Below are positions 9,238 to 30,799 of a stretch of DNA of 31,322 bases, piece after piece. The position numbers and the translations under genes are program-made. The notes beneath the pieces are model-generated. The model ran no database searches. It was not told where the DNA came from and worked only from the letters and a program-made list of their open reading frames with translations. The stretch's first letter is position 1; each line of letters starts with the position of its first letter. Source of the DNA: a virus; IMG/VR virus record IMGVR_UViG_3300012960_000002, positions 1 to 31,322 of that record; one strand, 5' to 3'.

Positions 9238-9264
9238 ACGTTAGGCCGACCCCCCGTTGACCCA
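9238..9264 (-). promoter_or_regulatory. Late promoter element, endolysin
   Basis: The minus strand reads GGGTCAACG, 11 nt, TAACGT, CG. The -10-like box ends 7 nt before ATG 9230, so the endolysin mRNA may be leaderless. The GGGTCAA box overlaps, in antisense, the TTGACC of a plus-strand promoter. Confidence 0.75.
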
Positions 9265-9284
9265 TCCGGCCCCAGATCTAGGAT
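9257..9284 (+). promoter_or_regulatory. Plus-strand sigma-A-type promoter
   Basis: TTGACC (9257-9262), a 16-nt spacer and TAGGAT (9279-9284) are followed after 8 nt by GTG 9293. It fits a vegetative promoter producing a leaderless or nearly leaderless mRNA for the plus gene. Its -35 shares bases with the leftward late element. Confidence 0.6.
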
Positions 9285-9292
9285 TCGGCCCG

Positions 9293-9580
9293 GTGAATCC
9301 GTGGGAGCAGATAGGCCGCGTCCTCGCCGAGGCCAAGCGCAACCGACTCCCCTGGAACGCCGCATGGCGCGAAGCAATGCGCACCCTCTCCCCCGAGCGC
9401 ACCGGCGGCCCCGGAATCGACCTCGTCAAGGATGAGCTGGCGAAAGAGCGCGAGCTACAGAAGGAACTGGCACCGTTCTGGCGCGCAGCCTACGAGGACC
9501 GCGAACCGACGTTGGAAGAGTGGGAGAAGGCGTCGAAACAGATCGAGCGCCGTCTAGACGAGATGTTCGCGCCGGCCTAG
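9293..9580 (+). CDS. Hypothetical plus-strand protein in the lysis region
   Basis: The 95-aa product starts MNPWEQIGRVLAEAKRNRLP and is helical and charged (LVKDELAKERELQKELAPFW ... LEEWEKASKQIERRLDEMF), with no signal or membrane segment. No family is recognised. GTG 9293 is chosen because a TAGGAT -10 lies 8 nt upstream. A TTG at 9257 in the same frame falls on the -35. It is divergent from endolysin and overlaps the convergent membrane gene by four bases. Independent strand and promoter suggest a gene expressed in lysogeny. Confidence 0.65.
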   Translation: MNPWEQIGRVLAEAKRNRLPWNAAWREAMRTLSPERTGGPGIDLVKDELAKERELQKELAPFWRAAYEDREPTLEEWEKASKQIERRLDEMFAPA

Positions 9581-10269
9581 CCGGCAGGTCCGCAGCTCGC
9601 CCCAAGCGGACCACAGGCTTTCCCGGTGACGCCTTCGACGGCGTGGTTCACGGAGTCACCCGTTTCCCCTACTACGTCTCCAGCCGCAGAGCCGACGTCT
9701 TCCACTGCTTTACCTGCTCCTTCAGCTATTGGGTTGGCTTTGGAGGACTCAGAGTTGCCATGGCCTTCGGACTTGCCGGGGCTCGCGGCGGCTGGCGCCG
9801 GGTCACCGCGGCTCGGTTCTCCGTTCGTGCCACCTGAAGCCGGCGCAGACGGGGGCTTGCCGCCGCCTTTCGGCGGCACCACGGTCGACGTCGAGTCACC
9901 GCGACCGCGGTCCGGCCTGCCCGATGCAGCCTCGGCGCCGACAGGCGCAACCCGCCCGGGTTCGATCGCACCACCTCCACCCCGCGGCTGCTTGACCTCG
10001 CACTTCGTCAGCTTCAAGAGCTTCCCGCCCTTGTCGACCTTGTAGAAGAGGACGCAGGTAGAGGAGACCGAGCGCTCTTCGTCGGATCGCTGCTTGATGT
10101 TCTGGCACTCGGCGCTGGCCTCTTTGGCGCAGGGGGAATCGGTGACGATGTTGCGGGTATTCTCGCCTCGCAAGCCGACGACCAGGATCAAGGTGAACCC
10201 GAGCACGAAGCCGATCGTCATGCCGGGGTTCCGCTGGACGGCTGAGTAGGAGCGCTGGGCAAAGGTCAT
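9577..10269 (-). CDS. Membrane-anchored, Pro/Gly-rich exported protein
   Basis: The 230-aa product has a short cytoplasmic N-terminus and one membrane anchor (about residues 16-33, GMTIGFVLGFTLILVVGL). A Cys-containing domain (SPCAKEASAECQNIKQ, TCVLFYK, LTKCEVK) follows, then a long disordered Pro/Gly/Ser stretch and a C-terminal CGPLGASCGPAG. Its place between holin-like and endolysin genes suggests a lysis accessory, possibly spanning the wall, but actinobacterial spanin-like proteins are not defined well enough to call it one. ATG 10269 has GAGAGGGA upstream. Confidence 0.6.
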   Translation of the reverse strand: MTFAQRSYSAVQRNPGMTIGFVLGFTLILVVGLRGENTRNIVTDSPCAKEASAECQNIKQRSDEERSVSSTCVLFYKVDKGGKLLKLTKCEVKQPRGGGGAIEPGRVAPVGAEAASGRPDRGRGDSTSTVVPPKGGGKPPSAPASGGTNGEPSRGDPAPAAASPGKSEGHGNSESSKANPIAEGAGKAVEDVGSAAGDVVGETGDSVNHAVEGVTGKACGPLGASCGPAG

Positions 10270-10279
10270 CGCGTCCCTC

Positions 10280-10474
10280 TCAAGGCCCGAAGAAGCGGTC
10301 GACGCCGTGCCCGAGCCAGATCAACACGAGGGCCACCATTGCGGTGATGAGCATGGGATCGATCTGACCCGTGGAGATCTGGCTGTACCCCGCCATCGCA
10401 AGGACGGCGACCGTGATCAGCTTCGCCATAGCCGGCGAGGACTTGCCGTCCCCCTGCTGTCGCTCGCTGGTCAA
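10280..10474 (-). CDS. Small membrane protein, second candidate holin
   Basis: The 64-aa frame (TTG 10474) has two hydrophobic segments (about 17-31, MAKLITVAVLAMAGY, and 41-57, MLITAMVALVLIWLG), separated by a short Gly/Gln/Asp turn, and ends GVDRFFGP. An internal ATG at 10429 would give a 49-aa form, a possible dual start as in some holin/antiholin pairs. It is the first gene after a late promoter element and is followed by the membrane-anchored lysis-region protein. The true start is uncertain because no strong ribosome-binding site is visible. Confidence 0.55.
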   Translation of the reverse strand: MTSERQQGDGKSSPAMAKLITVAVLAMAGYSQISTGQIDPMLITAMVALVLIWLGHGVDRFFGP

Positions 10475-10520
10475 TCACCGGCCCCGCTCGGTTCCTGTGC
10501 TCGGCAGATGCACACTGCCC

Positions 10521-10547
10521 AGTGTGTGCTTCCCGGTCGTTGACCCA
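10521..10547 (-). promoter_or_regulatory. Late promoter element, lysis genes
   Basis: The minus strand reads TGGGTCAACG, 11 nt, CACACT, GGG. It lies in the 74-bp gap between tail fibre and holin-like genes. The -10-like box is part of a 6-bp hairpin (CACACT/AGTGTG, 10511-10526), which could be regulatory. Confidence 0.7.
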
Positions 10548-10548
10548 G

Positions 10549-11313: not shown

Positions 11314-11316
11314 CGT

Positions 11317-12507
11317 CTATTCACCCTCCGGAACCAGCAAGGTCAGGGCTTCGCCGGTGATCCCGGCCGAGCTGAGCTCCGGCGCGCAGGTCACCTTCAC
11401 CTCGATCTGTCCGGAGGCTCGCTCGGTGACTTTCGCGTCCGTCACGCGCCCGGTCAGCTCCAGCGGTTCGTCGTCTTCGCCGTCGTCGTAGTCGAGGATC
11501 GTGATCGTGTCGCCGAGCCAGTAGTCGATCCCGAACCGGGGCGGCATCCCCTCCCCGGTCTCCTCTTCGTACTGCTCGGGTGCGGCGGTGAAGTCGAAGT
11601 AGGGGATCGGGTAGGCCGCGGCGGCGACGGCGGCTTCCGCGTGAGCTTTCAGCGTCGCGGCTTCCTTTACGTCGTCGAGTTGCTCGCGTTCCTCGAACTG
11701 GCCGTATTTGGCAATCGAGACTGCGTGCTTAGCGAAGTAGGAGGGGTGCAGGGCCTCGGGCGTTTCGCTTTCTTGATCCTTCGGGGCGCCCACGGCCAGG
11801 AACGCGTTGCAGAGTCTCTCGCCAGCGGGGGAGTAGGTGAGCGCGGTCGCGGTGCGCAACCCCCCGCCGGACTCGAAGATCACCGAGTCGGTGAGGTCCG
11901 CGCCTTGGCGCGGGTGGTAGGTGTTGAACTCGACCAGCGTCCCGTCGGTGGCCAGGACCGGGGCGAGCTCGAAGTCGGGGCCGTCGATCACCTCGGACAT
12001 CTCGACCAACGCCTGCCCGATCTCCTTGCTCGGCGCGTAGGTGCGGTCGCGGTTCAACGACGCCGGCAGCGAGCCTTCCACCACGCCGTGATCGGCGGCG
12101 ACGCTCGCGATCAGCGACCACATGATCTGAGACTGGTCTTTGCCGGTGAAGGTCCTTGGTTTCCAGGTGGCGCCTGAGACTTCCCGCACCAGCTTTCGTT
12201 CCAGGTGGAAGAAGGGATCGGAGGCGTTCAGGCCGAGCGTCTGCCCGTCGCCGGATCGGTTGCGCTCAGGGATCACCACCCGGCCGATGAACAGCGGCAG
12301 CGAGAAGCCTTCGGAGTCCTTCAGGGTGATCCGCAGCGCCGTGTCGATCGCGGTCGCCATCTCGCGCGCGTCGTCATCGAGGCTCAGCGGGCAGAAACCC
12401 TGCCGCATCCTGCACAGCCCGAGGTCGGCGTAGCCCCCGGCGTTCCGCTGGTCCAGGCGGGTAAGGACCGTCTGCTCGAGGTCGGTCAAATCGAAGTCGA
12501 GGTACAC
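11317..12507 (-). CDS. Baseplate/minor tail protein (ReqiPepy6 Gp37-like)
   Basis: The 396-aa product resembles the Gp37-like upper-baseplate proteins of actinobacterial siphoviruses. It has an early beta-rich part (TALRITLKDSEGFSLPLFIG), a linker helix with DQSQIMWSLIASVAADHGV, and a late domain (FGIDYWLGDTITILDYDDGE, then GRVTDAKVTERASG). Such proteins form the hub under the distal tail ring. GTG 12507 is 6 nt after the -10 box of a late promoter, so the mRNA may be leaderless; no Shine-Dalgarno sequence is seen. It restarts leftward transcription after the plus-strand island. Confidence 0.7.
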   Translation of the reverse strand: MYLDFDLTDLEQTVLTRLDQRNAGGYADLGLCRMRQGFCPLSLDDDAREMATAIDTALRITLKDSEGFSLPLFIGRVVIPERNRSGDGQTLGLNASDPFFHLERKLVREVSGATWKPRTFTGKDQSQIMWSLIASVAADHGVVEGSLPASLNRDRTYAPSKEIGQALVEMSEVIDGPDFELAPVLATDGTLVEFNTYHPRQGADLTDSVIFESGGGLRTATALTYSPAGERLCNAFLAVGAPKDQESETPEALHPSYFAKHAVSIAKYGQFEEREQLDDVKEAATLKAHAEAAVAAAAYPIPYFDFTAAPEQYEEETGEGMPPRFGIDYWLGDTITILDYDDGEDDEPLELTGRVTDAKVTERASGQIEVKVTCAPELSSAGITGEALTLLVPEGE

Positions 12508-12513
12508 ATGCCC

Positions 12514-12540
12514 AGCGTGGCGCGCGGCCACGTTGACCCC
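12514..12540 (-). promoter_or_regulatory. Late promoter element, baseplate gene
   Basis: The minus strand reads GGGTCAACG, 11 nt, CACGCT, GGG, ending 6 nt before GTG 12507. It lies in the 48-bp gap between divergent start codons, where a leftward promoter is needed. Confidence 0.75.
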
Positions 12541-12542
12541 GC

Positions 12543-12548: not shown

Positions 12549-12555
12549 GCGCGCC

Positions 12556-13020: not shown

Positions 13021-13038
13021 CTGCGTACCCGAAAAGCG

Positions 13039-15130: not shown

Positions 15131-18100
15131 CCGATCCCCTTCGCCCGAAGGATCGCGTCGAACTGCGCCATCGCGATCTGCGGGTCGGCGATCGACCCGG
15201 CCGGGGAGACGATTTCGGTGTTGTAGGTGTGGTGGTTGACGCTGCTCGAGCCGCCCCGGAGGCCCGCGGGGAGCGAGAGTTGAGCCGGGGTAGCGGAGAG
15301 CGAGAGGCCGTCAGCCATGACGCGGGCGAGATCCGGCGCGGCTTCTTCGATGCCCGCGGCGAAGTTTTCGATGAGTGCCCGCCCGCGCTTGGGGAGACCA
15401 CGCAGAGGCGAGGACGGGTCCTTCGGTTCGGAGCCTGGCAGCAGACCGGTGACCTTGTCGACGGCGCCCTTCACCTTCGAGTACAGCTCTTCGACCTTCG
15501 ACATGAAGCCGTCGATGAGGTTCTGGATAAGCGCCTGACCGGCCGCGTAGAAGCGAGAGGCGAAGTCGGCGACCTTTTCGACCGCGTTGGTGATCGCCTC
15601 CCCGACTGCGCTGGCGACCTGGCCGGCGACGTCATTGATCCCTCCCTTGACCTTTTCGAAGAGGTTCTTCCCGGCGTTGTAGGCCCTCTCGAAGGCGCCG
15701 CTGACCTTGTCGATCACTGCCTCGATGATGTCCCCGGCGGCGCCCGCAACCGCCGAGAAGGCGGCATTGATCCCCCCACGCACCTTCTCGAAGAGGTTGC
15801 GCCCCGCGTTCAGCGCTCGTTCGAACGCCCCCGTGATCTTGTCGATGACCGCACCAATCACGTCGGCCGCGGCGCCCACTACCGCGGCCCGCGCCGCGTT
15901 GATTCCCCCGGTCACCTTCTGGAACAGGCTGCGGCCGGCATTGAGTGCCCATGAAAACGCCCCGGTGATCTTGCCGACGACCGCCTCGACGACATTTCCG
16001 GCGGCGATGACCACCCAGTCCTTTGCTGCGGCGATCCCCTCCCGGACCTTGCCGAACAGATCCGTCCCGGCCTGCAGCGCTGCAGCACCCCATTCGCTCA
16101 CCTTGTCTACGGCGCCACTGGCAATGTCGCTCGCGGTTGCTGCGACTGCACCCGCCATACTGGAGATGGCGCCCGGGATCTTCTTGAAGGCTCCAATCAC
16201 GCCTTCGGCGAGACCGGTCAGCAGGCTAAGACCACCGAAGGAACCCAGGAACCCACGCACCGAGGCCGGGATTTCCGTCAGCAACAGCAGCAGGCGGTTG
16301 AATAGCTCGACCGCCTTGGTGATCCCCCCGACGATGGGCGTGAAGACCGGGGCCATCACTTGCGTGAACAGCAGCGCGGCCTTGGCGAGGGCGCCGAAGA
16401 GACCCAGAAGCGCCTTGACCAAGGGCATCACGTCCTGGAAGAAGGCCTGAATCCGTTCCTGGCCCTCCGAGGACTTTGCCCAATCCCGCAGCGCGTCGGT
16501 TCCCTTCGTCAGCCATTCGACCAGTTCCTTGCCCGCCGCCGCGGTCTCGCCGCCGAACAGGGCCACCATGAGCCCGCCGATCGACTTCAGCAGCCCGAGC
16601 CAGGCTTCCAGGTGGCTCACCAGCCCGCCGATCGAATCGCGCAGAGCGCCGATGCTCTTCGTCTTGTCCGAGATCCCAGAGAGGAAGTCGCGCACCTTGC
16701 GCAGGCCGGCGACCAGGAACGGCATTGCGGCGACGGCGATGTCCCGGAGGATCTCGGCGAGCTGGCCGAAGGATTCGCCCACCAGCTTCGTGACCTTGGC
16801 GCTCGAGCGGACGAAGAATTTGATTGCCTTCGTCCATTCCGGCCCGGCCAGTGCCTTACCCGCGCTCCGGGCAAGATTCCCTATCACTTCGCCGATCGCG
16901 GTCAGGCCTGGGCGCAATTCGCGGATCAGCGGCACGATCGAGCGCATCGCGTCGCGCAGCCCTTCCAGAACAGCCGTGGTCGCCGGTTTGAAGGCGTTGG
17001 CGAGCGCCTTTTTGACGTCTTCGAGGGTTTCGGCGAATTCGCGGTCCAGGCCGGTGAGTTCCTTGATTCCCGCGCCGGCACCCCCGCCCCCCGCACCTCC
17101 GCCTTCGGCCATCGCTTTGTTCGATTCGCGGATAGCCTGAGCCAGAGACTGGTGAGCGTCGCGCAGGCCCTCAGCGGCGGCGATCACGGCAGCGTTGTCC
17201 CGTACCCCGTCCTTCTGGAGACGCGAGAGCTTTTCGGCGGCCGCGGCGACTTCCGCAGCACCCTTGGCCTGCACGCGGGCGACTTCGGCGCTGGCCTTGG
17301 TCACCCCGCGCTGGGCTTCCGCGACTTCCTCCAGGGCCTGGGCGTAGGGTTCATATGCCTTCAGCCCTTCCTTGGCAAAGGCGTTCACCTGCTCTTGGGC
17401 TTCGGCTACTTCCTCGTGCGATCGAGCCAGCCGTTCGTCGGCATCGGTCAGCCCGGCCGTTGCATCGGAGAGCGTGTTGGTCGCCTTTTCGACGCCGAGC
17501 TGGGAGTGCTGCAGTTCCCGTGCAGAATCCGAGACCTTCTCGATCTGCTCGGGGGTGACGGAGATCCCCACCCCGGCCAACAGCGACCCGATGTCCAGCG
17601 AGGAGAGGTCCGCCGTCGAGAGGGTGGCGAGCACCTTGTCGAGGTCTTCCCCGCTCGCCCCGAGAGATTCGAGCAGCTGCCGCATCGACTCCTGCCGTTC
17701 CTGGAGCGCGTCTTCGGCGTCGGCTAGGTCGAGAGCGCTTTCCTTCTGAGCGGTCCGCGAGTCGCGCACCCCGCGTTCGGCTTCACGCACGCCGCGCATC
17801 GCGTCGGCGAGTTCGCGGTAGGCCGCCACCTGCGCCTTCAAGGCTTCGCGTTCTTGCCGTGCGGCTTCCTTCACCGCCGCCGCCGCGGCCACAACGGCGC
17901 GACGCTGTTCGTTCTTCGCCTCCCGAACGGCGCGCGTCGCTTCTGCTTCGACCTTGCGCACGTCCCGAGCCGCATCGCGGACTTCTTTCCAAGCTGCCGC
18001 CACGGCTTCGCGGTAGCTGCGCGTCGCCGTGACCAGTCCCTCTCGGGCGTCCCGCACAGCAGTGGAAGCCTGATACTCGCGCTCGTGGGCTTCCTTGAGC

Positions 18101-18992: not shown

Positions 18993-19019
18993 AATCTCCC
19001 GATCAGCGGCGTTGACCCC
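18993..19019 (-). promoter_or_regulatory. Late promoter element, tape measure
   Basis: The minus strand reads GGGTCAACG, 11 nt, GAGATT, CGG, ending 11 nt before GTG 18981. It lies just after the frameshifted chaperone's stop at 19025, so tape-measure expression may be separate from that of the tail tube. Confidence 0.75.
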
Positions 19020-19024: not shown

Positions 19025-19689
19025 CTACTTGCCGCGCTCCCACCACTTCTCGCCGACCTCGACCGGCGCACTCGGCTCGCGCGCCTTGAACAGCTCTTTC
19101 AGCTTGTCCGGCGCGTTTACGGCGGTCGCGAAGGCGATCGCCTGGACCTGCAGCTCATCGGCGACGCGCCGCTTGCGGGCGTCGAGTAGGTCTAAGAGGC
19201 GGGGGAGGGTGAGGCCGAGGGGTCGTCCGACGGCGTTGGGGGCGTCGGTGTAGAACTCGTCGACGGTGACTCCCCACTCTCGGACCGCGAGCTCAGCGAG
19301 ACCTCCGACAAAGCGGTCAGCGCTTCCCGCCGCAGCAGCTTCTGCAGACCGTCCGGACCCAGTATTGATTTTCCCAGGCGCACGAGCCGATCTGCGCCGT
19401 TGACGCGGTAGATGGCATCGACGGCGTCGAGAATCTGCGGCAGCGTCGGTTCGGTCTGAAGCGCCGCCGCCTCGTCATCTTGCTTACCCAGGAGGTCATC
19501 CAAGGGAGCGATATCCGGGATGAAGGTCTGGAGGAGGTCGTAGAGCTGAGAGTCGACCTCGCCGTCAAAGTCGCCCGAGCCCTCGCCGAACTGCATGAGC
19601 TTGACCAGCTTCTTGCGGATGCGGCCGATGCCCTGCGGAACGATCGTGTGAGAGCGCTGCCCGAGGGTGACGGAGACGCTGTCAGGCAT
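19025..19689 (-). CDS. Tail assembly chaperone, long -1 frameshift product (G-T type)
   Basis: Frame 0 from ATG 19689 reads to Lys107, within the slippery heptamer, then continues in the -1 frame to TAG at 19025. The product is about 221 aa. The -1 extension reads as a real protein (DRFVGGLAELAVREWGVTVD, then RLLDLLDARKRRVADELQ, ending EKWWERGK), with 114 residues and no other start. Long chaperones of this type bind the tape measure and deliver tail-tube subunits, and the frameshift fixes the ratio of short to long forms. The gene lies between major tail protein and tape measure, as in lambda G/T. Confidence 0.85.
19192..19689 (-). CDS. Tail assembly chaperone, short product (G type)
   Basis: The in-frame 165-aa product is helical (SHTIVPQGIGRIRKKLVKLM ... 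LLDDLLGK) with the usual acidic middle. Beyond the slippery site its tail turns into Ser/Thr/Pro-rich sequence (SSTPTPPTPSDDPSASPSPA), as expected if frame 0 is under weak constraint there. ATG 19689 overlaps the major tail protein stop (TGATG). It coats the tape measure and is absent from mature virions in the well-studied relatives. Confidence 0.8.
   Translation of the reverse strand: MPDSVSVTLGQRSHTIVPQGIGRIRKKLVKLMQFGEGSGDFDGEVDSQLYDLLQTFIPDIAPLDDLLGKQDDEAAALQTEPTLPQILDAVDAIYRVNGADRLVRLGKSILGPDGLQKLLRREALTALSEVSLSSRSESGESPSTSSTPTPPTPSDDPSASPSPAS
19369..19375 (-). other. Slippery site G GGA AAA for -1 frameshifting
   Basis: On the minus strand the heptamer GGGAAAA lies in frame 0 as G-GGA-AAA, giving G-GG/A-AA pairing after a one-base backward slip. 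It fits the X-XXY-YYZ rule and resembles lambda's GGGAAAG. The -1 frame is open on both sides of it; the +1 frame closes shortly downstream. No specific stimulating pseudoknot was worked out. Confidence 0.85.
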
Positions 19690-20375: not shown

Positions 20376-20674
20376 CAGTTACCCCCACCGTAGGCACCGC
20401 GACCGTTGACCCACTCGGGGTCATCACCGCTGCCCGAACCCGAGCCCGAGCCTGAGCCCGAGGTAACAAAGGTCGTCGTCTCGGCGCCCTGGTCGTTCTG
20501 GATGACCTCAACCTCATCGCCGATCGCGAAGGTGTGGCCCTCCACGTCCAGCAGCGACTCGGCCAGCGGCTCAGGTATCGCCAGCGCCTTGCCCTTCTCC
20601 AGCTCGAACCACTCGCCCTCGTACTCGGTCGAGTAGCAGCCGCTCGGACCGTGGTAGGTGACCTCTACGTTCAC
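20375..20674 (-). CDS. Small tail-region protein with Ser-Gly linker
   Basis: The 99-aa product has a compact N-terminal domain (about 1-70, beta-rich: FELEKGKALAIPEPLAESLL, HTFAIGDEVEVIQND). Then comes a Ser-Gly repeat with acidic end (residues 72-85, six SG units and DD) and a short tail WVNGRGAYGGGN. No family is recognised. GTG 20674 overlaps the upstream TGA (GTGA). It lies between tail terminator and tube genes. The late promoter for the tube gene is embedded in its last codons, which explains the odd Trp-Val-Asn in the tail. Confidence 0.6.
   Translation of the reverse strand: MNVEVTYHGPSGCYSTEYEGEWFELEKGKALAIPEPLAESLLDVEGHTFAIGDEVEVIQNDQGAETTTFVTSGSGSGSGSGSGDDPEWVNGRGAYGGGN
20387..20413 (-). 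promoter_or_regulatory. Late promoter element, major tail protein
   Basis: The minus strand reads TGGGTCAACG, 11 nt, TACGGT, GGG, ending 11 nt before ATG 20375, inside the 3' end of the preceding gene. Confidence 0.75.
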
Positions 20675-21135
20675 GAGAACTCCAGCGGTTCGGCGATCAC
20701 CATGTTGGCGAACATCCGCCGACCGGAGGTCGTGTCGGGCCGCTCCTCGAAGGGCTCGGCGAGAGACGCGGTGAGGAAAGGCGATGCCATCGGGACTCTG
20801 TCGCCGAGCGTAAGGTCGGCCAGCGTTGACCCAATCAGGGCTTCGGCGAAATCTTCGACCGCTTTTTGGGCTGCATCCTCGCCGCCGACCCCTTCCTCCT
20901 GCGGGACCATGATCGAAAGCTCGATCACCCACTCCTTTAACCCGTCGACCTGCTCCAAGGCGGCGAACGGGAAGTTGTCGGGATCGCTTTTGACGGTGCG
21001 AATGTCTTGAACAACAACAACGACGTCGGGTAGGTCCCCCGATTCGGCAAGCGGATGCGGGTAGCCCGCCTTCAGGACCGGGATCTGCTCCCGAGCCCAC
21101 GCGACCACCCCCTCGGCGATTTTCCTGGAGGTCAA
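20671..21135 (-). CDS. Tail terminator/completion-like protein
   Basis: The 154-aa product has the alpha/beta pattern of neck proteins: an N-terminal helix (IAEGVVAWAREQIPVL), a strand-rich centre (DVVVVVQDIRTVKSD, then EWVIELSIMVPQ), a helix (AAQKAVEDFAEALIG) and a final strand pair. Position before the tube protein suggests a tail terminator that caps the tube and joins it to the head. The TTG start at 21135 overlaps the upstream stop (TTGA). A complete late promoter element lies within the gene at 20806-20832. Confidence 0.6.
   Translation of the reverse strand: MTSRKIAEGVVAWAREQIPVLKAGYPHPLAESGDLPDVVVVVQDIRTVKSDPDNFPFAALEQVDGLKEWVIELSIMVPQEEGVGGEDAAQKAVEDFAEALIGSTLADLTLGDRVPMASPFLTASLAEPFEERPDTTSGRRMFANMVIAEPLEFS
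20806..20832 (-). promoter_or_regulatory. Intragenic late promoter element
   Basis: The minus strand reads TGGGTCAACG, 11 nt, TACGCT, CGG, inside the tail terminator-like gene. An in-frame ATG lies 16 nt after the -10 box (20790). The element agrees with the consensus at every conserved position although it is within coding sequence. Confidence 0.55.
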
Positions 21136-21931: not shown

Positions 21932-22608
21932 GCGAGCGCCCCGGCCGCACCGCTCCAGCGGTAGCCCTTGAGCAGTCGCCGGACCCGAGTCGAGACGGCG
22001 GGCTCGCCCTTGCCGAGTTCGATCGAGAGGCCGCCCTGGTTCACCGACGAGAGCCCGAGCGCGCGCGCCGACCGCACGGTGTCAGCGAGGGCATGGCCAT
22101 TGGCGAGCGCCCGGTCCTCCATATCGAAGCGAAGCGCCGTCGTGATCGCCTCCGGGTATTCGTCGTCGGCCCAGCCCCACACGCCCGTCACCTGCACAGT
22201 GCCGGCACCCGCGACAAACAGGGCTCGTGGCCGCTCGCTGTATTCCGCGGCGGCCTGGGCGAGCCAGTTCGTGTTGCCGCCCTCCTCGATGATGCTCAGG
22301 CGGTCGTGCCTGTCGTTCAGCTCCACGTCGCCAGCGTCGATCGCAGCGCCGGCAACGCTCAGGTCGTGTAGGGAGGCAAGGCGGCGCGGAAGGTAGAGGG
22401 TTCGCGACCCGGTGCCATCGATTGCGAGCGTGGTGAACTCGTCGCCCGAGCCTGATGCGCTACCGGCCTCAGCGGTGAAGGATTGGCGACAGTGCCCCTC
22501 GATCGCCAGGATCGCCTCGGCACGAAGTGCGTCCTGCTCGGCCTCGCCGAGCGCTTTCAACTCGGCGTTCGAGGAGGCGTCAACCAGCTCTTTGGTCGTC
22601 GGGTACAT
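21928..22608 (-). CDS. Head-tail connector (adaptor) protein
   Basis: The 226-aa product has an N-terminal helical part (residues 1-45, STTKEL-like start with ALRAEAILAIEGHCRQSF), a beta domain (about 60-160: SRTLYLPRRLASLHDLSVAG and later) and a long helix. This fits gp6/gp15-type adaptors that bind the portal. Residues 49-56 are another Ser-Gly stretch with Asp (GSASGSGD). ATG 22608 lies 10 nt downstream of a late promoter -10 box that is embedded in the end of the glycosyltransferase gene. Confidence 0.6.
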   Translation of the reverse strand: MYPTTKELVDASSNAELKALGEAEQDALRAEAILAIEGHCRQSFTAEAGSASGSGDEFTTLAIDGTGSRTLYLPRRLASLHDLSVAGAAIDAGDVELNDRHDRLSIIEEGGNTNWLAQAAAEYSERPRALFVAGAGTVQVTGVWGWADDEYPEAITTALRFDMEDRALANGHALADTVRSARALGLSSVNQGGLSIELGKGEPAVSTRVRRLLKGYRWSGAAGALA

Positions 22609-22618: not shown

Positions 22619-22645
22619 ACGTTAGACAGGGGCTACGTTGACCCC
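22619..22645 (-). promoter_or_regulatory. Late promoter element, connector genes
   Basis: The minus strand reads GGGTCAACG, 11 nt, TAACGT, CGG, ending 10 nt before ATG 22608. Its upstream box encodes the GVN near the C-terminus of the preceding protein. Confidence 0.75.
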
Positions 22646-23617
22646 GGCTGCTTCTCGGATGGCCTCGGCGGCGCGGTCGGCGGCCTCGCCGCGGTGCGGG
22701 TAGACAGCGGCGACGATCTGCTGTCGACGCCCACGAATCTCGGGCGGGTCGGTCAGCGCGTGCCAGATCGACTCGCCCAGCTCGGGCGGCCGCTCTACCT
22801 GCAGACCCACGTCAGCGAACTCCCAGAAACGCAGCCCGTGCTCGACCTCCCGCCGGTACTCAGGGATGTTCAGCACCACCACAGGCATCACCGTCGCCGC
22901 CTCGTAGAGGGTGCTCGAGCAGTCGTTGACGTAGAGGTCGGCGCGGGCCAGAACGTCACGGAAGTCGGGCACCCACTCGACGCCCATCTTCCCCGCCCAG
23001 CGGGCGAGTCCGTTCTGCATCCGAGGGTGGCCGTGGATGATCAGGTCGTAGGGGCGTTTCGCCCGGACCAGATCTTCTACGGCGCGGCGGTAGTGGCGCC
23101 ATGCGCTCCAGGTCTCGCGGATCTTGTTGCCAGCCTGCTTGGTGTCCCAGTGAAAGGAGATGGCGACGACGGGACGGGCTCCGGGCTCGCGGTGGCGCAC
23201 CGGCAGCTGGTCGAGCTTGGGGCAGCCGACCACGTCGACCGGGATGCTCGGGTAGCTCGCGCGCCAGAGCACGGCGTTGTGCTCGTTGGGCGAGAGGAAG
23301 CGTACGACGCGGTCGAGGCCGGGACCACCCGCATAGCCCTTGTGCTCTCCGGTGACGAAGCCCTGACCGTTGCCGTGGGCCATGTAGACGACAGGTCCCT
23401 TGACGCGGTGGTAATCGCCGCGGGCAGCGCAGACGGTGAGCGTGTCGGCCGGGATCGGCGGGGCGGCGCCCTCGTAGCCGGTGGGAGTGATGCCGAGATC
23501 GAGTGCGTGGTCGACCAGCGCAGTCGGCACGTAGAAGTCGCCGCCGACCTGATGCCACACCGGCGCCAGGTGGTCGATGAAGTGGCGCATCCGGCCGGTG
23601 AAGGCGATGGGGGTCAC
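22622..23617 (-). CDS. GT-B glycosyl/glycerophosphotransferase-like protein
   Basis: The 331-aa product resembles CDP-glycerol glycerophosphotransferases and related GT-B enzymes: an N-terminal Rossmann part with HG (81-82), GCPKLD (131-136), an SFHWDT segment, HGHPR (195-199) and NDCSSTLYEAA (231-241), which matches the donor-binding 'S-S..E' loop. It would transfer a sugar or polyol phosphate in the cytoplasm. Being first-downstream of two other glycosyltransferases within the head module, it may decorate the capsid or modify host wall glycans. ATG/GTG start near 23617 overlaps the previous gene by 4 bases. Confidence 0.75.
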   Translation of the reverse strand: MTPIAFTGRMRHFIDHLAPVWHQVGGDFYVPTALVDHALDLGITPTGYEGAAPPIPADTLTVCAARGDYHRVKGPVVYMAHGNGQGFVTGEHKGYAGGPGLDRVVRFLSPNEHNAVLWRASYPSIPVDVVGCPKLDQLPVRHREPGARPVVAISFHWDTKQAGNKIRETWSAWRHYRRAVEDLVRAKRPYDLIIHGHPRMQNGLARWAGKMGVEWVPDFRDVLARADLYVNDCSSTLYEAATVMPVVVLNIPEYRREVEHGLRFWEFADVGLQVERPPELGESIWHALTDPPEIRGRRQQIVAAVYPHRGEAADRAAEAIREAAGVNVAPV

Positions 23618-24384
23618 CGGTGGTACCGACGATCCGACGGCTTCACGCCGCGCTCGATCTCTTCGGTTTCATCCCCTTTCACGGGTACGTCTAGGGGGTC
23701 CACTGCTCCTTCGGCCACCAGCTCCCGCATCGCCTCAACGTCCCCCCGCGCCGCGACGTAGCGCCCCTGCAAGGCGTGATTCCCAGGCGAGGTCTCGTGT
23801 TTTCCGTCCCGTAGCACGGGGGGGTGCCAGAGGTGGATCAGCGGCTTCCCGCTCTGGCGCCACTCCATGCCGACCAGCGTCCGCAGAGCGTCTCGCCAGG
23901 CGCAGTCCTCGCTCCCCCAGCCCGTGAAGCGCCGGTCGGGTGGCACCTGTTCCAGGGTCTCACGGCGGGCGACGAGAATCCCGCCGCCGGCGTGGCCGCG
24001 GTAGGGACGCTTCTCGGTCGCCAGCGCCTCGGGCGCCCTGCAGCCCGCGAGCAGTTCGCCGGTGGCGATCGGCGTCAGCCGGTGAACCTTCTCGTGCGGA
24101 ACCGCCCACGGCGCCCCTTCGCGCACCGCCTGCACGGCTTCACCGATCCCGTCACACCAGGAGTCGGCGTCGTTGACGATGACGATCTCGCGAGCGTCCG
24201 GCAGGGCGGATCGGATCGCCCCGCCCTTGCACCACTCGCCGTCGCTCGGTGGGCTGACCGCCAGGGCGCTCGCGTCACCCAGCAGATAGCCCGAGTAGCG
24301 CCCCAGCACGTAGTTCAGCGCCGCGGTGCGGTGGTCGCACTCCAGGCCCCAGTGCCAGGGGACGATGACGCTTACGTCGCCCAA
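23614..24384 (-). CDS. GT-A glycosyltransferase (GalNAc-transferase-like)
   Basis: The 256-aa product shows a GT-A fold: SVIVPWHWG near the N-terminus, an Asp-Ala-Asp motif (72-74, VNDADSWCDG) for metal and nucleotide sugar, and GGGILVARRETLEQV ... FTGWGSEDCAWR (155-160). The last is the acceptor/catalytic motif of galactosyl- and GalNAc-transferases. The TTG start at 24384 overlaps the preceding gene by 13 bases. No signal or membrane segment is present, so it should act on intracellular acceptors such as phage structural proteins. Confidence 0.8.
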   Translation of the reverse strand: MGDVSVIVPWHWGLECDHRTAALNYVLGRYSGYLLGDASALAVSPPSDGEWCKGGAIRSALPDAREIVIVNDADSWCDGIGEAVQAVREGAPWAVPHEKVHRLTPIATGELLAGCRAPEALATEKRPYRGHAGGGILVARRETLEQVPPDRRFTGWGSEDCAWRDALRTLVGMEWRQSGKPLIHLWHPPVLRDGKHETSPGNHALQGRYVAARGDVEAMRELVAEGAVDPLDVPVKGDETEEIERGVKPSDRRYHR

Positions 24385-25079
24385 AGCTTCCGTCGCTCTC
24401 GGAGCAATGCCTGGTCGGCGTCCCGGTTGGCCCGGTTTCCCTTGGCATCCGTGTCGTCGACCGGCCGGTTGCCGTGGTCGGGATGCAGGTGCTCGATGAT
24501 CGAGTTGGGAGCGTGGACGAAGAGCCCGCGCGCCTGCGCCGTCTCGCAGAGCTCTACGTCGATGCAGTTGTGGTGGTAACCCTCGTGGAAGACCTTGCCC
24601 GGTTCGTCGACAGTGCCGAGCTTGTCGATGTACCAGCGGGCAACGAGGATCTGCGTCGCGTACCGGCCGGTGCGGGTGTGGCGATTATGCAGATCGTAGG
24701 TCCCGATCACGCCAAAGCTGGGGGCGGGAAAGCTCGTCTCAGACAGGTTCGCGATGACTTCCCGATCTCGCTCCATCGCCTCCTCCCACCAGCGGGGGTG
24801 GAACTTCACGTCGTCGGCCGTCAGCAGCACCCAGGGCTCAGTCGTCGCCGCCACCGCCGCGTTGATCTTGTGCGGGTAGGTCCCGTCCTCCACCATCACC
24901 CGGACGTAGGGCTTGTCGAGGCGCTTGATCTCCCTGTAGGTCTCGGCGTCGTCGCGGTCAAGCACGAACACCACGGAGTAGATGCCCGTGGGAGTGTTGG
25001 CCTCGAGCGACTCCAGCAGCGGCGCCAGGGCGTGGGGCCGGCGCAGCGTGGGAACGAGGATCGCGACCGACGGGGCCAC
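24372..25079 (-). CDS. GT-A (family 2-like) glycosyltransferase
   Basis: The 235-aa product has the typical N-terminus (SVAILVPTLRRPHALAPLL), an Asp pair (VFVLDRDDAE), and the metal-binding region TADDVKFHPRWWEE (about 88-101). It also has a later acceptor-region His/Asp-rich segment (HEGYHHNCIDVELCETA). It lacks membrane segments. GTG 25079 lies 22 bp after the upstream stop, without a clear Shine-Dalgarno sequence. With the next two genes it forms a three-enzyme glycosylation cassette that would build a short glycan stepwise. Confidence 0.8.
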   Translation of the reverse strand: MAPSVAILVPTLRRPHALAPLLESLEANTPTGIYSVVFVLDRDDAETYREIKRLDKPYVRVMVEDGTYPHKINAAVAATTEPWVLLTADDVKFHPRWWEEAMERDREVIANLSETSFPAPSFGVIGTYDLHNRHTRTGRYATQILVARWYIDKLGTVDEPGKVFHEGYHHNCIDVELCETAQARGLFVHAPNSIIEHLHPDHGNRPVDDTDAKGNRANRDADQALLRERRKLWAT

Positions 25080-26879: not shown

Positions 26880-27212
26880 TTAGACGATCCCCGCAAGGTC
26901 AGGGTCGAGGCCGGCAGCCTCGAACGATTTCGTGATCTCCTCGGGGGTCACCGGATCGGTGTCCTTGGAGCCATCCGTCTGCGAGGAGTCGCCCTCGCCG
27001 AGCTTCTCGACCTTCTCGCCGAGAGCCTTCACGAGAGTGGCGACGTCGCCCAACTCCTTCTTGACGTCCTCGACCGTCGGAGCCTCGGGCTCAGGCTTGA
27101 CCGCCTTGGCGATGTCGGCCACACCGTCGGTGAGCTTGGTGATCCCCTCGGCCAGGTCGGCCTGGGTTTTCTCCAGCTTCTCGAAGCGCTCTTTGGTCTC
27201 GGCGTCAGTCAT
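26880..27212 (-). CDS. Nested scaffold protein from internal in-frame start
   Basis: ATG 27212 (codon 309 of the protease frame) has GGAGAGGA upstream, and a late promoter -10 box ends 13 nt before it. It would yield a 110-aa acidic coiled-coil protein (TDAETKERFEKLEKTQADLA, then VKKELGDVATLVKALGEKVE), the size and composition of a scaffold. Separate expression would supply the excess of scaffold over protease needed for procapsid assembly. The same C-terminus, attached to protease, would target the enzyme into the procapsid. Confidence 0.7.
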   Translation of the reverse strand: MTDAETKERFEKLEKTQADLAEGITKLTDGVADIAKAVKPEPEAPTVEDVKKELGDVATLVKALGEKVEKLGEGDSSQTDGSKDTDPVTPEEITKSFEAAGLDPDLAGIV

Positions 27213-28136
27213 CGTGTCCTCTCCGAAGGTAGGGGTCGGCGGCGTTGACCCATCCGGGGCCGCGCCGAAGGCTTTGGCAAGCGCCTCTTCGCGCTCGGTC
27301 TTCTCGACGGGAACCGTGTCGAGCATCTCCAGCGCCCAGGCTTTGAACTCGTCGCAGGACTCGGAGATCAGGGTCTTGGGGTCGGCCGAGTCCTTGTCGA
27401 TGGGGAAGAAGGCGCCCCACACCGCATCGCGGAAGGCATCGAAGGCGAGTGGCAGAGCCTCATCGAATTCCCGCTGGGCGACGATCTCCCCGAAGGTGCG
27501 ATCCGACTTCTCGACCACCTCCGCGGGAAGGTCGCCCCGCTTCACCAAGACATCAACCACACGTTTCAGCAGGCTTTGTTCGGCCACGGAACCGACGGTA
27601 CGGCCGGCCCGCGTTGACCCCTTGCCCTTCTCGACGAGTTCGCGCACCGCGGTCCCCTCGATCGACACGCCCGTGAATTCGCCCTTCTCGATGGCGGCCT
27701 TGCCGTCCTCGGTCGGGGTGATGGCGATGTACCAGGAGCCCTTGGTGATGGTCTCCCCGTTGACGGTGAAGTCGGCCAGGGCGACGGCGTTCTCGACCAG
27801 CTGACCGAAGGGGTCGAGCGACTCGTGCAGCTTCGTGACGAGCCCGCCGTTGGCCATGAAACGGTGCGCGGCCTTGCGGATCTCATCCTCGCCCGCCCAC
27901 ACGTCATCGATGCCCGGAGCGCTCGCGCCCTGGCCGGGGTTCTCAGCCCAGCCGGGCTCGGCGACGACGCAGTAGACCGTCGACCAGTCCTCGGCTTTCA
28001 CCAGCCGGTGCGTGTTCGTCAGCGTCTCGGCTTCGTCGCCTTCGGCCTTGGTGAGGAAGAAGCGCTTGCGGTTGGCGCCCTTGTCGACGATGGAGATCGC
28101 CTTGATGTCAGCGTCGCGCAGGAGGTGGACCGGCAT
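26880..28136 (-). CDS. Prohead protease (XkdF-like) fused in frame to scaffold
   Basis: The 418-aa product begins MPVHLLRDADIKAISIVDKG and matches XkdF-type phage serine proteases: His104 (VTKLHESLDPFG), then GSWYIAITPTEDGKAAIEKG, and Ser158 in EFTGVSIEG as probable nucleophile. The protease domain covers about residues 1-180. A helical middle (184-300) leads to an acidic coiled-coil C-terminus (309-418) that looks like a scaffold. ATG 28136 lies 6 nt after a late promoter -10 box. A longer ATG at 28226 would run through a strong hairpin and looks non-coding. The layout mirrors lambda C/Nu3. Confidence 0.8.
   Translation of the reverse strand: MPVHLLRDADIKAISIVDKGANRKRFFLTKAEGDEAETLTNTHRLVKAEDWSTVYCVVAEPGWAENPGQGASAPGIDDVWAGEDEIRKAAHRFMANGGLVTKLHESLDPFGQLVENAVALADFTVNGETITKGSWYIAITPTEDGKAAIEKGEFTGVSIEGTAVRELVEKGKGSTRAGRTVGSVAEQSLLKRVVDVLVKRGDLPAEVVEKSDRTFGEIVAQREFDEALPLAFDAFRDAVWGAFFPIDKDSADPKTLISESCDEFKAWALEMLDTVPVEKTEREEALAKAFGAAPDGSTPPTPTFGEDTMTDAETKERFEKLEKTQADLAEGITKLTDGVADIAKAVKPEPEAPTVEDVKKELGDVATLVKALGEKVEKLGEGDSSQTDGSKDTDPVTPEEITKSFEAAGLDPDLAGIV
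27226..27252 (-). promoter_or_regulatory. Late promoter element, scaffold and capsid
   Basis: The minus strand reads TGGGTCAACG, 11 nt, TACCTT, CGG, inside the protease frame and 13 nt before the nested scaffold ATG 27212. Confidence 0.75.
27595..27621 (-). promoter_or_regulatory. Intragenic late promoter element in protease gene
   Basis: The minus strand reads GGGTCAACG, 11 nt, TACCGT, CGG, ending 7 nt before an in-frame GTG (27587, codon 184). It could give a leaderless mRNA for a 235-aa protein lacking the protease domain, and adds transcripts for scaffold and capsid. Confidence 0.7.
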
Positions 28137-28142
28137 GGAGTT

Positions 28143-28169
28143 AGCGTGCCGACCGGCCGCGTTGACCCC
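28143..28169 (-). promoter_or_regulatory. Late promoter element, protease
   Basis: The minus strand reads GGGTCAACG, 11 nt, CACGCT, AA, ending 6 nt before ATG 28136. The hairpin at 28176-28215 lies just upstream. Confidence 0.75.
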
Positions 28170-28175
28170 GAATAG

Positions 28176-28215: not shown

Positions 28216-28264
28216 TGATCCACCATGGCAAGCAGATCGACCGACGTGACAGGCCGGCTTGCTC

Positions 28265-28291
28265 AGTCTCTCGACCACCAGCGTTGACCCC
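28265..28291 (-). promoter_or_regulatory. Late promoter element after the MuF-like gene
   Basis: The minus strand reads GGGTCAACG, 11 nt, GAGACT, GAG, directly overlapping the MuF-like gene's TAG stop. No gene start follows at the usual distance; the next ATG in the protease frame (28226) is 38 nt away. Its RNA would begin with the hairpin region. Confidence 0.65.
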
Positions 28292-28932: not shown

Positions 28933-29287
28933 CGTCGATCGGGGTCCCCTTGCAAGAGCACCCGAAACAACAGGGCTTGTCGTACGGAAACTTCCGGCAC
29001 ATGTCCGGCCGGTCCTCGTAGATCCCGCACAACCGCGTCTCCTCATCCCAGTGCTTGCAGGTGAAGACGCGACCGCGGTCGCGCGCCCATCGGTATGGCG
29101 CGTCGCCCCCCAAGGCGGCGTTCCGCTCGTTTGCCTCTTTCGGCGTGAGAGGGATCACCATCTCGGCGATCTGCGCCCGTTCCTCGTCGCCGTGCTTGCC
29201 GGCCGCCCGGAGGGATGCGCGGGTCTCGGGGATTCGGAACGCGGCGCAGCACAGACCTGAGCAGCCGTTGCTCGCCTCGGTGCTCAT
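28925..29287 (-). CDS. YkgJ-like Cys-cluster protein
   Basis: The 120-aa product carries the CxxxCC start (Cys9, Cys13, Cys14: NGCSGLCCAAF) and a second set (FTCKHWDEETRLCGIYEDRP, then MCRKFPYDKPCCFGCSC), with the Y-x-x-R-P-x-x-C-R-x-F-P signature of the YkgJ/UPF0153 family. These proteins are predicted to coordinate Zn or an Fe-S cluster; their reaction is not settled. Being placed between portal and MuF genes with ATGA overlap to portal suggests co-expression with head assembly. It has no signal peptide. Confidence 0.8.
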   Translation of the reverse strand: MSTEASNGCSGLCCAAFRIPETRASLRAAGKHGDEERAQIAEMVIPLTPKEANERNAALGGDAPYRWARDRGRVFTCKHWDEETRLCGIYEDRPDMCRKFPYDKPCCFGCSCKGTPIDDA

Positions 29288-30765
29288 TCCTCAATGCCGG
29301 TGGGAGTCGGGTTCCCCTCAGCCAACAGCAGGGCGGCTTTGCGCGCGCCGTCGAGGATGTCCCCGTGCGAGGCGTCGCCGCTGACCTCCACCAGCATCCC
29401 GTTCCAGCCGTGCTCCACCTCGCCGACCTCGGGCTCCTGGCCCTCCTCGGCCTCGGGGAGCGGGGCGAGGCCGTGGGATTCACGGAGCTCCCCGTAGGTG
29501 ATCGCCTCGTGCTCGGCGAGGGAGTCCGCCCCTTCGGCCTGGGCCTTGTCGTCGGTGACGTCGATCTCGGCGAACTTGAAGGTCATGTGCTCGGCGCCCA
29601 TGTCGCGCAGGATGGTGTGGGCGAGGATGTCCTGCCAGCGGTCCTGCTCGGGATCGAAGACCTGCTCCTTGGTCAGCCGGCGCTCGGTCTCGGCCGTCGA
29701 GTAGTTCGTGTCCTCGATGTCCGCGGTGAAGATCGGGGAGAGGCGGAAGGCGCCGTGGGTCGCCCGCCGGTTGTCTTTGCGGAACTCGATGAAGCCCATG
29801 TCGCGCTCCGACAGGGTGGCGAGGTCGATCGAGTCAGCGTCCACCCCCTCGGGTAGAGCGACGACGGCGACTCGGTGGCGCTTGTCGCCGTCGCCGCTGA
29901 GGGTCTGCGTGATCCGGGTCGCGACGTCGGGCGGGATCTCCAGGTCGACGGCCTCCTCGTCGTCTTTCGGCAGCGGCACCTTGACGAAGATCACCGTCGG
30001 CGGCACACCGCTGGCGCCGAAGAACCCGACGTTCGCCTCAGCAGCGTTGCGGTCCCCGAGGTAGTCGATCGCCAGGTGAGCGTCTCGGGGCAGCCCGTAG
30101 TCCCGGCTCTCGGAGGTGTAGATCTGGAAGGCGATGATCTCGTTGCGGTCCCAGCGCTTCTGCAGCGGGCCACCCTCGGCCAGGCGAGCCTCCGGGCGGC
30201 CGTCGGCGCTGTACTGGACCTTATCGCCGAAGTCGTAGAACTCGACCATCTCGTGCGGAGCGCCGTTCTTCGGTCCGACCACCCATCCCTTGCGGTCCTC
30301 ACGGCGGCGCACCAGCTTGCCGGGGACGTGAAAGAGGCCGTCGATATCCCCGGTGACCCGGTTGCGCGAGACCTCGAGGTAGCCGTTGCCCACCTCCTCC
30401 TCATCCCACTTCACCGTCGAGAGCAGGCGCTTGAGGTTCGGCCGCTGCAGCCGCACGTCGCGGCGGGCCATGTCGTTGAGGGCCTGCAGGAGCTCGGCGC
30501 CCTCATCCTCCTTGGCCTCGTCCTCCATGCCCTCTCGGGGCACCACCTCCACCCCGCGGCCCACCGTGTTCAGGGTGATCGCCTCGATGCACGAGCGCCG
30601 GGTGCGGGCGAACTGCGTGAAGCCGGCCAGCGCGTCGAGGTCCGCCGGCGGCTGCAAGGCGTGTTCGGGCGTCCAGCGGTCAGCGTTGTCCTCGGGCTGG
30701 GCGGTAACGCCTTCGGGCATCGGGGCCACCCGTGCCCGGACCGCCTTTCGGACTAGGTCGCTCAC
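29284..30765 (-). CDS. Portal protein
   Basis: The 493-aa product matches phage portal proteins of the PBSX/HK97-like type: FARTRRSCIEAITLNTVGRG in the wing, VKWDEEEVGNGYLEVSRNRV, and the clip/stem region with EIIAFQIYTSESRDYGLPRD followed by LAIDYLGDRNAAEANVGFFG. A late IEFRKDNRRATHGAFRLSPI follows. It forms the dodecameric DNA channel that docks terminase. GTG 30765 lies 7 nt after a late promoter -10 box and also has GGGGGA immediately upstream, so both leaderless and SD-led translation are possible. It is normal in length for the family. Confidence 0.9.
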   Translation of the reverse strand: MSDLVRKAVRARVAPMPEGVTAQPEDNADRWTPEHALQPPADLDALAGFTQFARTRRSCIEAITLNTVGRGVEVVPREGMEDEAKEDEGAELLQALNDMARRDVRLQRPNLKRLLSTVKWDEEEVGNGYLEVSRNRVTGDIDGLFHVPGKLVRRREDRKGWVVGPKNGAPHEMVEFYDFGDKVQYSADGRPEARLAEGGPLQKRWDRNEIIAFQIYTSESRDYGLPRDAHLAIDYLGDRNAAEANVGFFGASGVPPTVIFVKVPLPKDDEEAVDLEIPPDVATRITQTLSGDGDKRHRVAVVALPEGVDADSIDLATLSERDMGFIEFRKDNRRATHGAFRLSPIFTADIEDTNYSTAETERRLTKEQVFDPEQDRWQDILAHTILRDMGAEHMTFKFAEIDVTDDKAQAEGADSLAEHEAITYGELRESHGLAPLPEAEEGQEPEVGEVEHGWNGMLVEVSGDASHGDILDGARKAALLLAEGNPTPTGIEE

Positions 30766-30772
30766 TCCCCCG

Positions 30773-30799
30773 ACTCTGGCGAGGGGCTGCGTTGACCCC
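30773..30799 (-). promoter_or_regulatory. Late promoter element, portal
   Basis: The minus strand reads GGGTCAACG, 11 nt, CAGAGT, CGG, ending 7 nt before GTG 30765. The upstream box directly follows the TAG stop of the small preceding gene. Confidence 0.75.

What the first reader, a model, noticed from the sequence alone, without database searches (positions are those of the whole stretch)
9238..30799. A 12-copy, rigidly spaced late-promoter family with an unusual upstream box
The 9-mer GGGTCAACG occurs 12 times on the minus strand and I found none on the plus strand; about 0.1 per strand is expected by chance. All copies lie between 9238 and 30799. In every copy a second box nAnnnT begins exactly 12 nt after GTCAAC, with A at position 2 and T at position 6 in 12 of 12, and usually CGG or GGG after it. 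GTCAAC occurrences lacking the GGG...G context (18668, 19398, 13645) do not have the second box. Nine of the 12 second boxes end 6-13 nt before an annotated or nested start codon, giving 6-7 nt leaders before portal, protease, baseplate and endolysin. If the second box is a -10, the upstream box is centred near -28, too close for a normal -35. The nearest analogy is the T4 MotA box plus -10 architecture, or an unusual sigma factor. L5-like stoperators are an alternative, but the fixed second box argues for a promoter. I infer a phage-encoded or phage-induced activator.
Basis: partly seen in the sequence, partly recalled or inferred. Interest (0 to 1): 0.92.

Follow-up and report, generated by a model that had tools for sequence, protein, structure and literature searches.

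The report
Phage late promoters with private box
A small group of viruses of soil bacteria (order Solirubrobacterales) carries the same two-part DNA switch, 11-14 times per genome, in front of its virion and lysis genes; one part is the host's own start signal and the other is a 9-base tag that the host does not use, so the virus probably makes a protein that calls the host polymerase to these genes.

Summary
Confirmed and extended. All 12 GGGTCAACG copies lie on the minus strand and are followed, after exactly 11 nt, by [TCG]AnnnT. Two related IMG/VR contigs (virion proteins about 50-94% identical) carry 11 and 14 more copies, all on the late-gene strand: 37 of 37 have the second box (34 at spacing 11, three at 12). 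Across orthologous sites box 1 is 99% identical and the A and T of box 2 are 100% identical, while spacer and flanks are 39-51% identical. The element also precedes non-homologous genes (two terminase modules, lysis genes, an HNH insert). Box 2 is very probably the host housekeeping -10: in 382 kb of a Solirubrobacterales genome TAnnnT peaks 6-7 nt before start codons, the distance seen in about half of the phage sites (leaderless mRNAs). Box 1 is not a host motif: the two-box pattern occurs at control level in 232 genomes of the order. Best reading: dispersed, leaderless late promoters served by host sigma-A RNA polymerase and a phage activator bound at -32 to -24, functionally like T4 MotA. 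The activator is not identified; no sigma or WhiB family was found. An unrecognised sigma factor, or a repressor at -10-only promoters, remain rivals. No transcript has been mapped.

The parts
30773..30798 (-). late promoter element 1: box 1 30790-30798, box 2 CAGAGT 30773-30778; portal GTG at 30765, 7 nt downstream
   Evidence: conserved at the portal gene in G1 and G2
28265..28290 (-). element 2 (GAGACT); nearest ATG 28226, 38 nt away; G2 has a small virion-like gene with its own element in the matching interval, so this may be a leftover
28143..28168 (-). element 3 (CACGCT); XkdF-like protease ATG at 28136, 6 nt downstream
   Evidence: conserved in G1
27595..27620 (-). element 4 (TACCGT), inside the protease ORF; in-frame GTG at 27587, 7 nt downstream, giving the 235-aa C-terminal (scaffold-like) product
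   Evidence: conserved in G1 and G2
27226..27251 (-). element 5 (TACCTT), inside the same ORF; in-frame ATG at 27212, 13 nt downstream (110 aa)
   Evidence: conserved in G1 and G2
22619..22644 (-). element 6 (TAACGT); head-tail adaptor ATG at 22608, 10 nt downstream
20807..20832 (-). element 7 (TACGCT), inside the 154-aa ORF; in-frame ATG at 20790, followed by an overlapping downstream gene
   Evidence: conserved in G1 and G2
20387..20412 (-). element 8 (TACGGT); major-tail-protein-like gene ATG at 20375, 11 nt downstream
18993..19018 (-). element 9 (GAGATT); tape measure gene GTG at 18981, 11 nt downstream
12514..12539 (-). element 10 (CACGCT); minor tail gene GTG at 12507, 6 nt downstream; homology to G1 and G2 begins close to this start, not at the longer ORF start 12996
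10521..10546 (-). element 11 (CACACT); nearest GTG of an ORF of 36 aa or more at 10478, 42 nt away
   Evidence: conserved in G2
9238..9263 (-). element 12 (TAACGT); endolysin ATG at 9230, 7 nt downstream
6654..7301 (-). winged-helix protein, the only recognisable regulator outside the late module found in all three genomes; candidate factor with a counter-argument (recognition helix differs)

Best explanation
The elements are the late promoters of a temperate siphophage group of Solirubrobacterales. Box 2 ([T/C/G]AnnnT plus [C/G]GG) is the -10 element (-12 to -7) read by the host's housekeeping sigma-A RNA polymerase; transcription starts about 7 nt later, so about half of the genes are leaderless (start codon at +1 or +2) and the rest have leaders of a few nt. 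Box 1 (GGGTCAACG, -32 to -24) replaces the -35 element and is bound by a phage-encoded activator that contacts the polymerase at fixed spacing and switches on many late cistrons separately, including nested ones. Shown here: the boxes, their spacing, conservation, link to start codons, the match of box 2 to the host signal, and the absence of box 1 as a host promoter class. Inferred: that transcription starts there, that box 1 is read by a phage protein, that it activates, and which protein it is.
For: 37/37 box-1 copies in three phages carry the A..T box at 11 nt (34) or 12 nt (3), all on the late-gene strand. Footprint over 29 ortholog pairs: upstream 39% identical, box 1 99%, spacer 51%, A and T 100%, box-2 middle bases 52%. 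By mechanical scan 16 of 37 sites have the start codon of an ORF at exactly 6-7 nt, against 2.8% for random late positions (binomial p about 1e-15; sites are partly orthologous, so the p value is only indicative). In 382 kb of a Solirubrobacterales genome TAnnnT occurs 31 times at 6-7 nt before 273 first start codons and 0-3 times at most other distances, with hexamers such as TAGCGT, TACGGT and TAACGT that the phages also use. Mycobacterial and actinobacterial -10s are TANNNT with no -35 consensus (PMC3898074, PMC3160421). Box 1 is phage-specific: two-box pattern in 9 of 232 genomes of the order, no more than the reversed-pattern control; the 9-mer 5 times in 382 kb of host DNA, about what composition predicts. 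First base of box 2 is T in 21/37 and C in 12/37, whereas the host shows no peak for CAnnnT, which fits activator dependence. The element also precedes non-homologous genes: two different TerS/TerL modules, different lysis genes, an HNH insert.
Against: No transcript has been mapped. The activator is not identified: the winged-helix protein present in all three is only 26-30% identical, and its recognition helix differs although box 1 is invariant. Four of 37 elements have no start codon within 20 nt. Which host strain the window phage uses is inferred from one relative's flanking dnaG. Leaders of 10-19 nt are not all explained by a Shine-Dalgarno sequence.
Confidence: 0.72

Rival explanations
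1. Both boxes are read by an alternative sigma factor, phage-encoded but too divergent to recognise, or a host ECF sigma. Read that way the element is GTCAAC-N15-CnT[C/G], close to ECF spacing, and resembles the bipartite late promoters GTAAtg-(16)-aCTA of phage 7-11 and its own sigma.
For: Spacing is compatible with ECF-type promoters (recalled knowledge). A phage sigma reading many late promoters is known in 7-11 (PMC8948821). Position 25 T is invariant, and 26 C/G and 27 G are favoured.
Against: No Sigma70_r2 and no above-cut-off Sigma70_r4_2 in the three contigs. Box 2 and its distance to start codons match the host housekeeping -10. The invariant A at position 21 is not expected of an ECF -10. 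A host sigma should have its own regulon, but the motif is at control level in 232 genomes.
Confidence: 0.15
2. The promoters are -10-only, like host promoters, and box 1 is an operator: a repressor bound at -32 to -24 keeps the scattered late promoters silent in the lysogen, similar to the many-site immunity of Cluster A mycobacteriophages (stoperators).
For: Host promoters show no -35. The group is temperate (integrase and flanking host dnaG in G2). Stoperators are asymmetric, about 13 bp, many per genome and mostly in one orientation (PMC6550527, PMC9283540). The winged-helix protein lies where a repressor gene could be.
Against: A repressor does not need a fixed 11-nt spacing to the -10. 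About 40% of box 2 copies lack the T at position 1 that host promoters show, so many would be weak alone. No box 1 is found near early genes, which an immunity repressor would have to silence.
Confidence: 0.1
3. Box 1 is an elongation-blocking or anti-terminator-loading site, not a promoter part; the A..T box is coincidental or part of the same site.
For: Sites are oriented with transcription and spread through one long late transcription unit, as stoperators are.
Against: Start codons sit at 6-7 nt in about half of the sites, as for host -10s. Spacer and box-2 middle bases vary freely while A and T do not. No RNA family match in the window.
Confidence: 0.03

Closest known systems
T4 middle promoters (MotA box + sigma70 -10; AsiA/MotA sigma appropriation)
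   Same: Phage-specific box in place of the -35, centred near -28 to -30, at fixed distance from a host -10 (T4: 12 +/- 1 bp; here 11 or 12); many copies over the genome; host RNA polymerase (PMC2988021, PMC6755090).
   Different: Different sequence (GGGTCAACG versus (a/t)(a/t)(a/t)TGCTTtA); box 1 almost invariant whereas MotA boxes vary; -10 imperfect whereas T4 needs a good one; late virion genes rather than middle genes; leaderless starts; small temperate actinophage; no MotA or AsiA relative specifically searched for or seen.
Late promoters of phage 7-11 (phage ECF-like sigma gp47)
   Same: Bipartite consensus in front of late genes, several copies.
   Different: No sigma family found here; -10 part is the host's; spacing and sequences differ (PMC8948821).
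Start-Associated Sequences (SAS/ESAS) of Cluster K mycobacteriophages
   Same: Repeated, oriented short sequence just upstream of start codons of genes of different families in an actinophage.
   Different: Different sequence (GGGATAGGAGCCC), no two-box -10 arrangement described, function unknown (PMC3203893).
Stoperators of Cluster A mycobacteriophages (L5, Bxb1, TipsytheTRex)
   Same: Many asymmetric sites in one orientation.
   Different: Repressor sites mostly not tied to promoters; no fixed second box or start-codon distance reported in what was read (PMC9283540, PMC6550527).
Actinobacterial leaderless promoters (TANNNT about 12 bp before the start codon)
   Same: Box 2 and its position.
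   Different: No upstream box in host promoters (PMC3160421, PMC3898074).

Membership tests
Actinobacterial sigma-A (-10 TANNNT) promoters, leaderless class | A and T at fixed positions of a hexamer, 6-9 nt before the start codon | tested here: met
   37/37 sites have A..T; 18 of 37 chosen starts (16 by the mechanical rule) at 6-7 nt; host sample peaks at the same distance
Actinobacterial sigma-A (-10 TANNNT) promoters, leaderless class | T at the first position | tested here: inconclusive
   T in 21/37, C in 12, G in 4; host shows a T peak, a weak G signal, none for C
T4 MotA-type middle promoter | activator box about 12 bp upstream of a host -10, no -35 | tested here: met
   spacer 11 (34 sites) or 12 (3 sites)
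T4 MotA-type middle promoter | MotA box consensus (a/t)(a/t)(a/t)TGCTTtA | tested here: not met
   box 1 is GGGTCAACG in 36/37
T4 MotA-type middle promoter | dependence on phage MotA and AsiA | not testable with these tools
   needs transcription assays; no such gene recognised in the proteins scanned
Phage sigma-factor late promoter (7-11 / phiEco32 type) | phage-encoded sigma factor | tested here: not met
   no Sigma70_r2 match, no Sigma70_r4_2 match above cut-off in the window, G1 and G2; contigs may be incomplete
Cluster A stoperator | repressor-bound sites not tied to promoters | tested here: inconclusive
   sites are tied to a -10 and to start codons; binding not testable here
Cluster K SAS | sequence 5'-GGGATAGGAGCCC | tested here: not met
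   different conserved sequence

The most novel reading that the evidence does not exclude
An independent, actinobacterial counterpart of sigma appropriation: a phage protein without recognisable relatives binds an almost invariant 9-bp box at -32 to -24 and recruits or remodels sigma-A RNA polymerase at imperfect -10s, so that a small temperate phage drives 11-14 separate, largely leaderless late cistrons, including scaffold-like products nested in frame, instead of one long operon.
Probability: 0.4. Interest if true: 0.8.

Novelty: new variant of a known kind. Interest (0 to 1): 0.63.

Why it matters
Late gene control in phages of the Solirubrobacterales seems unstudied; the searches made here returned nothing on it. 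The element gives an exact, testable map of late promoters, corrects several gene starts (endolysin, protease, minor tail protein), explains nested virion products by promoters instead of internal ribosome sites, and predicts a new phage transcription factor acting on an actinobacterial polymerase that normally ignores the -35. If the factor is found it would be a second natural design of the MotA kind and a compact late-expression switch.

Tried and rejected
Direct phage relatives in GenBank: no nucleotide match; protein matches below 60% identity. More relatives by portal and MCP alignments in IMG/VR: only G1 and G2. Two pattern scans of IMG/VR: no other contig with several copies. Portal relatives in bacterial genomes: none in the GTDB contigs, one distant in 399 genomes of the host class, and that prophage lacks the element. 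RNA families: none in the window. WhiB: none. AlphaFold of the winged-helix protein: mean pLDDT 63, fold hits only say ArsR/MarR-like. AlphaFold of the pre-terminase zinc protein: mean pLDDT 56, not searched further. A back-to-front use of box 1 as a TTGACC -35 for a divergent gene was seen in two of three phages, but the upstream sequence shows no general conservation.
Full report
What was checked. The window is a 31,322-base linear viral contig, 66% G+C. Nearly all recognisable genes are on the minus strand. In transcription order they are a terminase end (by homology to G2), portal, an XkdF-like protease ORF, a capsid-like virion structural protein (MCP), tail genes, tape measure, minor tail genes, endolysin, then a regulatory stretch and RecT/exonuclease/primosomal genes. 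GGGTCAACG occurs 12 times, all on the minus strand, against 0.42 expected on both strands, and each copy has A and T at the stated positions of a second box. All lie in the late part; none is in the early part (8 kb and below).

Relatives. The MCP finds one contig, IMGVR_UViG_3300005337_000511 (here G1, 41.9 kb, MCP 94% identical), and a two-box pattern scan finds a second, IMGVR_UViG_3300044837_000268 (G2, 44.6 kb). They share the late module with the window at about 30-94% protein identity. G1 has 11 and G2 14 elements (G2 includes one with GGGTCAACA), all on the late strand. Taken together, 37 of 37 elements have box 2, 34 after 11 nt and three after 12 nt. The three 12-nt sites comprise the TerS genes of G1 and G2 and one orphan. 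Searches with portal and MCP alignments, and a broader pattern scan, found no further member.

Footprint. Over 29 orthologous site pairs, identity is 39% in the 40 nt upstream, 99% in box 1, 51% in the spacer, 100% at the A and T, 52% at the three middle bases, 72% in the next three bases ([C/G]GG) and 45% beyond. Two separate contacts with a free spacer point to protein-DNA recognition rather than a coding or RNA-structure constraint. The element is also found in front of genes that are not homologous: the TerS/TerL modules of G1 and G2 look different from each other (by inspection of the sequences), the genes after the lysis-region element differ, and G2 has it before an HNH endonuclease gene and a small virion-like gene inserted relative to the window. 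So it travels with late-gene starts, not with a gene family.

Start codons. Distances from the end of box 2 to the start codon cluster at 6 and 7 (16 of 37 by a mechanical rule, 18 if the homology-supported start is taken for G1 TerS and the G1 lysis-region gene), then 8-19; four have none within 20 nt. Random late positions have a qualifying start at 6-7 nt in 2.8% of cases. Homology between the phages begins close to the element-defined start for the protease and the minor tail protein, not at the longest ORF start. Two elements lie in frame inside the protease ORF and one inside the 154-aa ORF, each followed by an in-frame start codon in all three phages: nested products from nested promoters, comparable in outcome to nested scaffold genes of other phages (general knowledge).

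Host. G2 ends in a tRNA-Asn gene and a cellular dnaG whose best matches are 78-86% identical and come from Solirubrobacterales/Thermoleophilia MAGs, and it starts with an integrase-like gene (read by eye), so the group is temperate in that order. In 382 kb of one Solirubrobacterales genome (273 genes by a simple caller, first in-frame ATG or GTG), TAnnnT occurs 16, 15, 5 and 9 times at 6, 7, 8 and 9 nt before the start codon and 0-3 times at most other distances; these host hexamers include TAGCGT, TAGCCT, TACGGT and TAACGT, and no upstream box is visible. GAnnnT shows a weak signal and CAnnnT none. This agrees with published work: TANNNT -10 without -35 in M. tuberculosis (PMC3898074) and TANNNT about 12 bp before start codons as the mark of leaderless genes in Actinobacteria (PMC3160421). 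Box 2 is therefore very probably the host -10. Box 1 is not a host signal: the two-box pattern appears in 9 of 232 genomes of the order, no more than the reversed control, and the 9-mer 5 times in the 382 kb sample, about what base composition predicts (my estimate, 4.8).

Mechanism. With box 2 at -12 to -7, box 1 covers -32 to -24, where a -35 would be contacted. The constant spacing, despite free spacer sequence, suggests contact between the box-1 protein and RNA polymerase. Box 2 lacks the first T in 16 of 37 cases, which in host promoters seems disfavoured, so many of these promoters should be weak alone. Both points favour an activator over a repressor. T4 middle promoters have the same design: MotA box centred at -30, 12 +/- 1 bp from a host -10, replacing the -35 (PMC2988021; PMC6755090). 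This is a likeness of design, not membership: the box sequence differs and no MotA or AsiA relative was recognised.

Which protein. No sigma-70 region 2, no above-cut-off region 4 and no WhiB domain is found in the three contigs. The only recognisable regulator outside the late module present in all three is a winged-helix protein (window 7301-6654; G1 13622-13026; G2 16401-15781; HTH_20 just above cut-off). It is only 26-30% identical, and the recognition helix differs (RQVYDQIN, SVVARHVR, NNVAYHVR), which is odd for a reader of an invariant box; it could as well be the immunity repressor. Two zinc-binding-type genes directly upstream of TerS are about 50-55% identical between G1 and G2 and have no box 1 of their own; by position they fit a late regulator, but the window contig ends before them. 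The factor stays open.

Rivals. A sigma factor that escapes the profiles remains possible; phage 7-11 shows such a bipartite late class (PMC8948821), and the spacing of box 1 to the CnT[C/G] part is near ECF spacing (recalled knowledge). A repressor acting on -10-only promoters is possible for a temperate phage with host promoters that need no -35; the fixed spacing, the weak -10s and the absence of box 1 near early genes speak against it. Stoperators and SAS sequences (PMC6550527, PMC9283540, PMC3203893) share repetition and orientation but not the two-box design.

Verdict. It is a family of late promoters with high probability (about 0.9), served by host sigma-A polymerase and a phage activator with moderate probability (about 0.7). 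It is a new variant of a known kind. No experiment has been done.

Noticed in passing
window 9257-9580 (+); G1 16069-16386 (+); G2 19063-19383 (+): A plus-strand gene of about 105 aa, conserved in all three phages (41-52% identity) and without family match, diverges from the lysis-region element. It has its own TA/CA-nnnT box 8 nt before its likely start; in the window and G2 the complement of box 1 gives TTGACC exactly 16 bp upstream of that box, so the late factor could also control this gene.
   Followed up: partly
window 26880-28136: Protease ORF with two in-frame internal elements and start codons (GTG 27587, ATG 27212), conserved in G1 and G2: possible nested scaffold products made from nested promoters.
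   Followed up: partly
window 22622-25079: Three genes, two with glycosyltransferase-like matches, between tail and head-tail genes; no counterpart found in G1 or G2. Probably a cargo (moron) insert.
   Followed up: no
L032 2824-3584, L029 2341-2891: Zinc-type genes directly upstream of TerS in G1 and G2; the first (G2) has an endonuclease-VII-like N-terminal zinc part and a helical tail that looks like actinobacterial IHF (recalled resemblance, not tested; AlphaFold confidence low).
   Followed up: partly
G2 (L030, L032): G2 is a prophage lying next to tRNA-Asn and the host dnaG, with an integrase-like gene at the other contig end.
   Followed up: partly
G1 39692-40285 and G2 40995-41507, with the TerL genes after them: TerS/TerL modules that look non-homologous between G1 and G2, both with the element at 12-nt spacing and a leaderless GTG start.
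   Followed up: partly
window 28265-28290; G2 35263-35289: Elements without a nearby long ORF; probably left behind after gene loss or an HNH insertion.
   Followed up: no
window 5848-6412: Two divergent Cro/CI-like HTH genes, a possible lysogeny switch.
   Followed up: no
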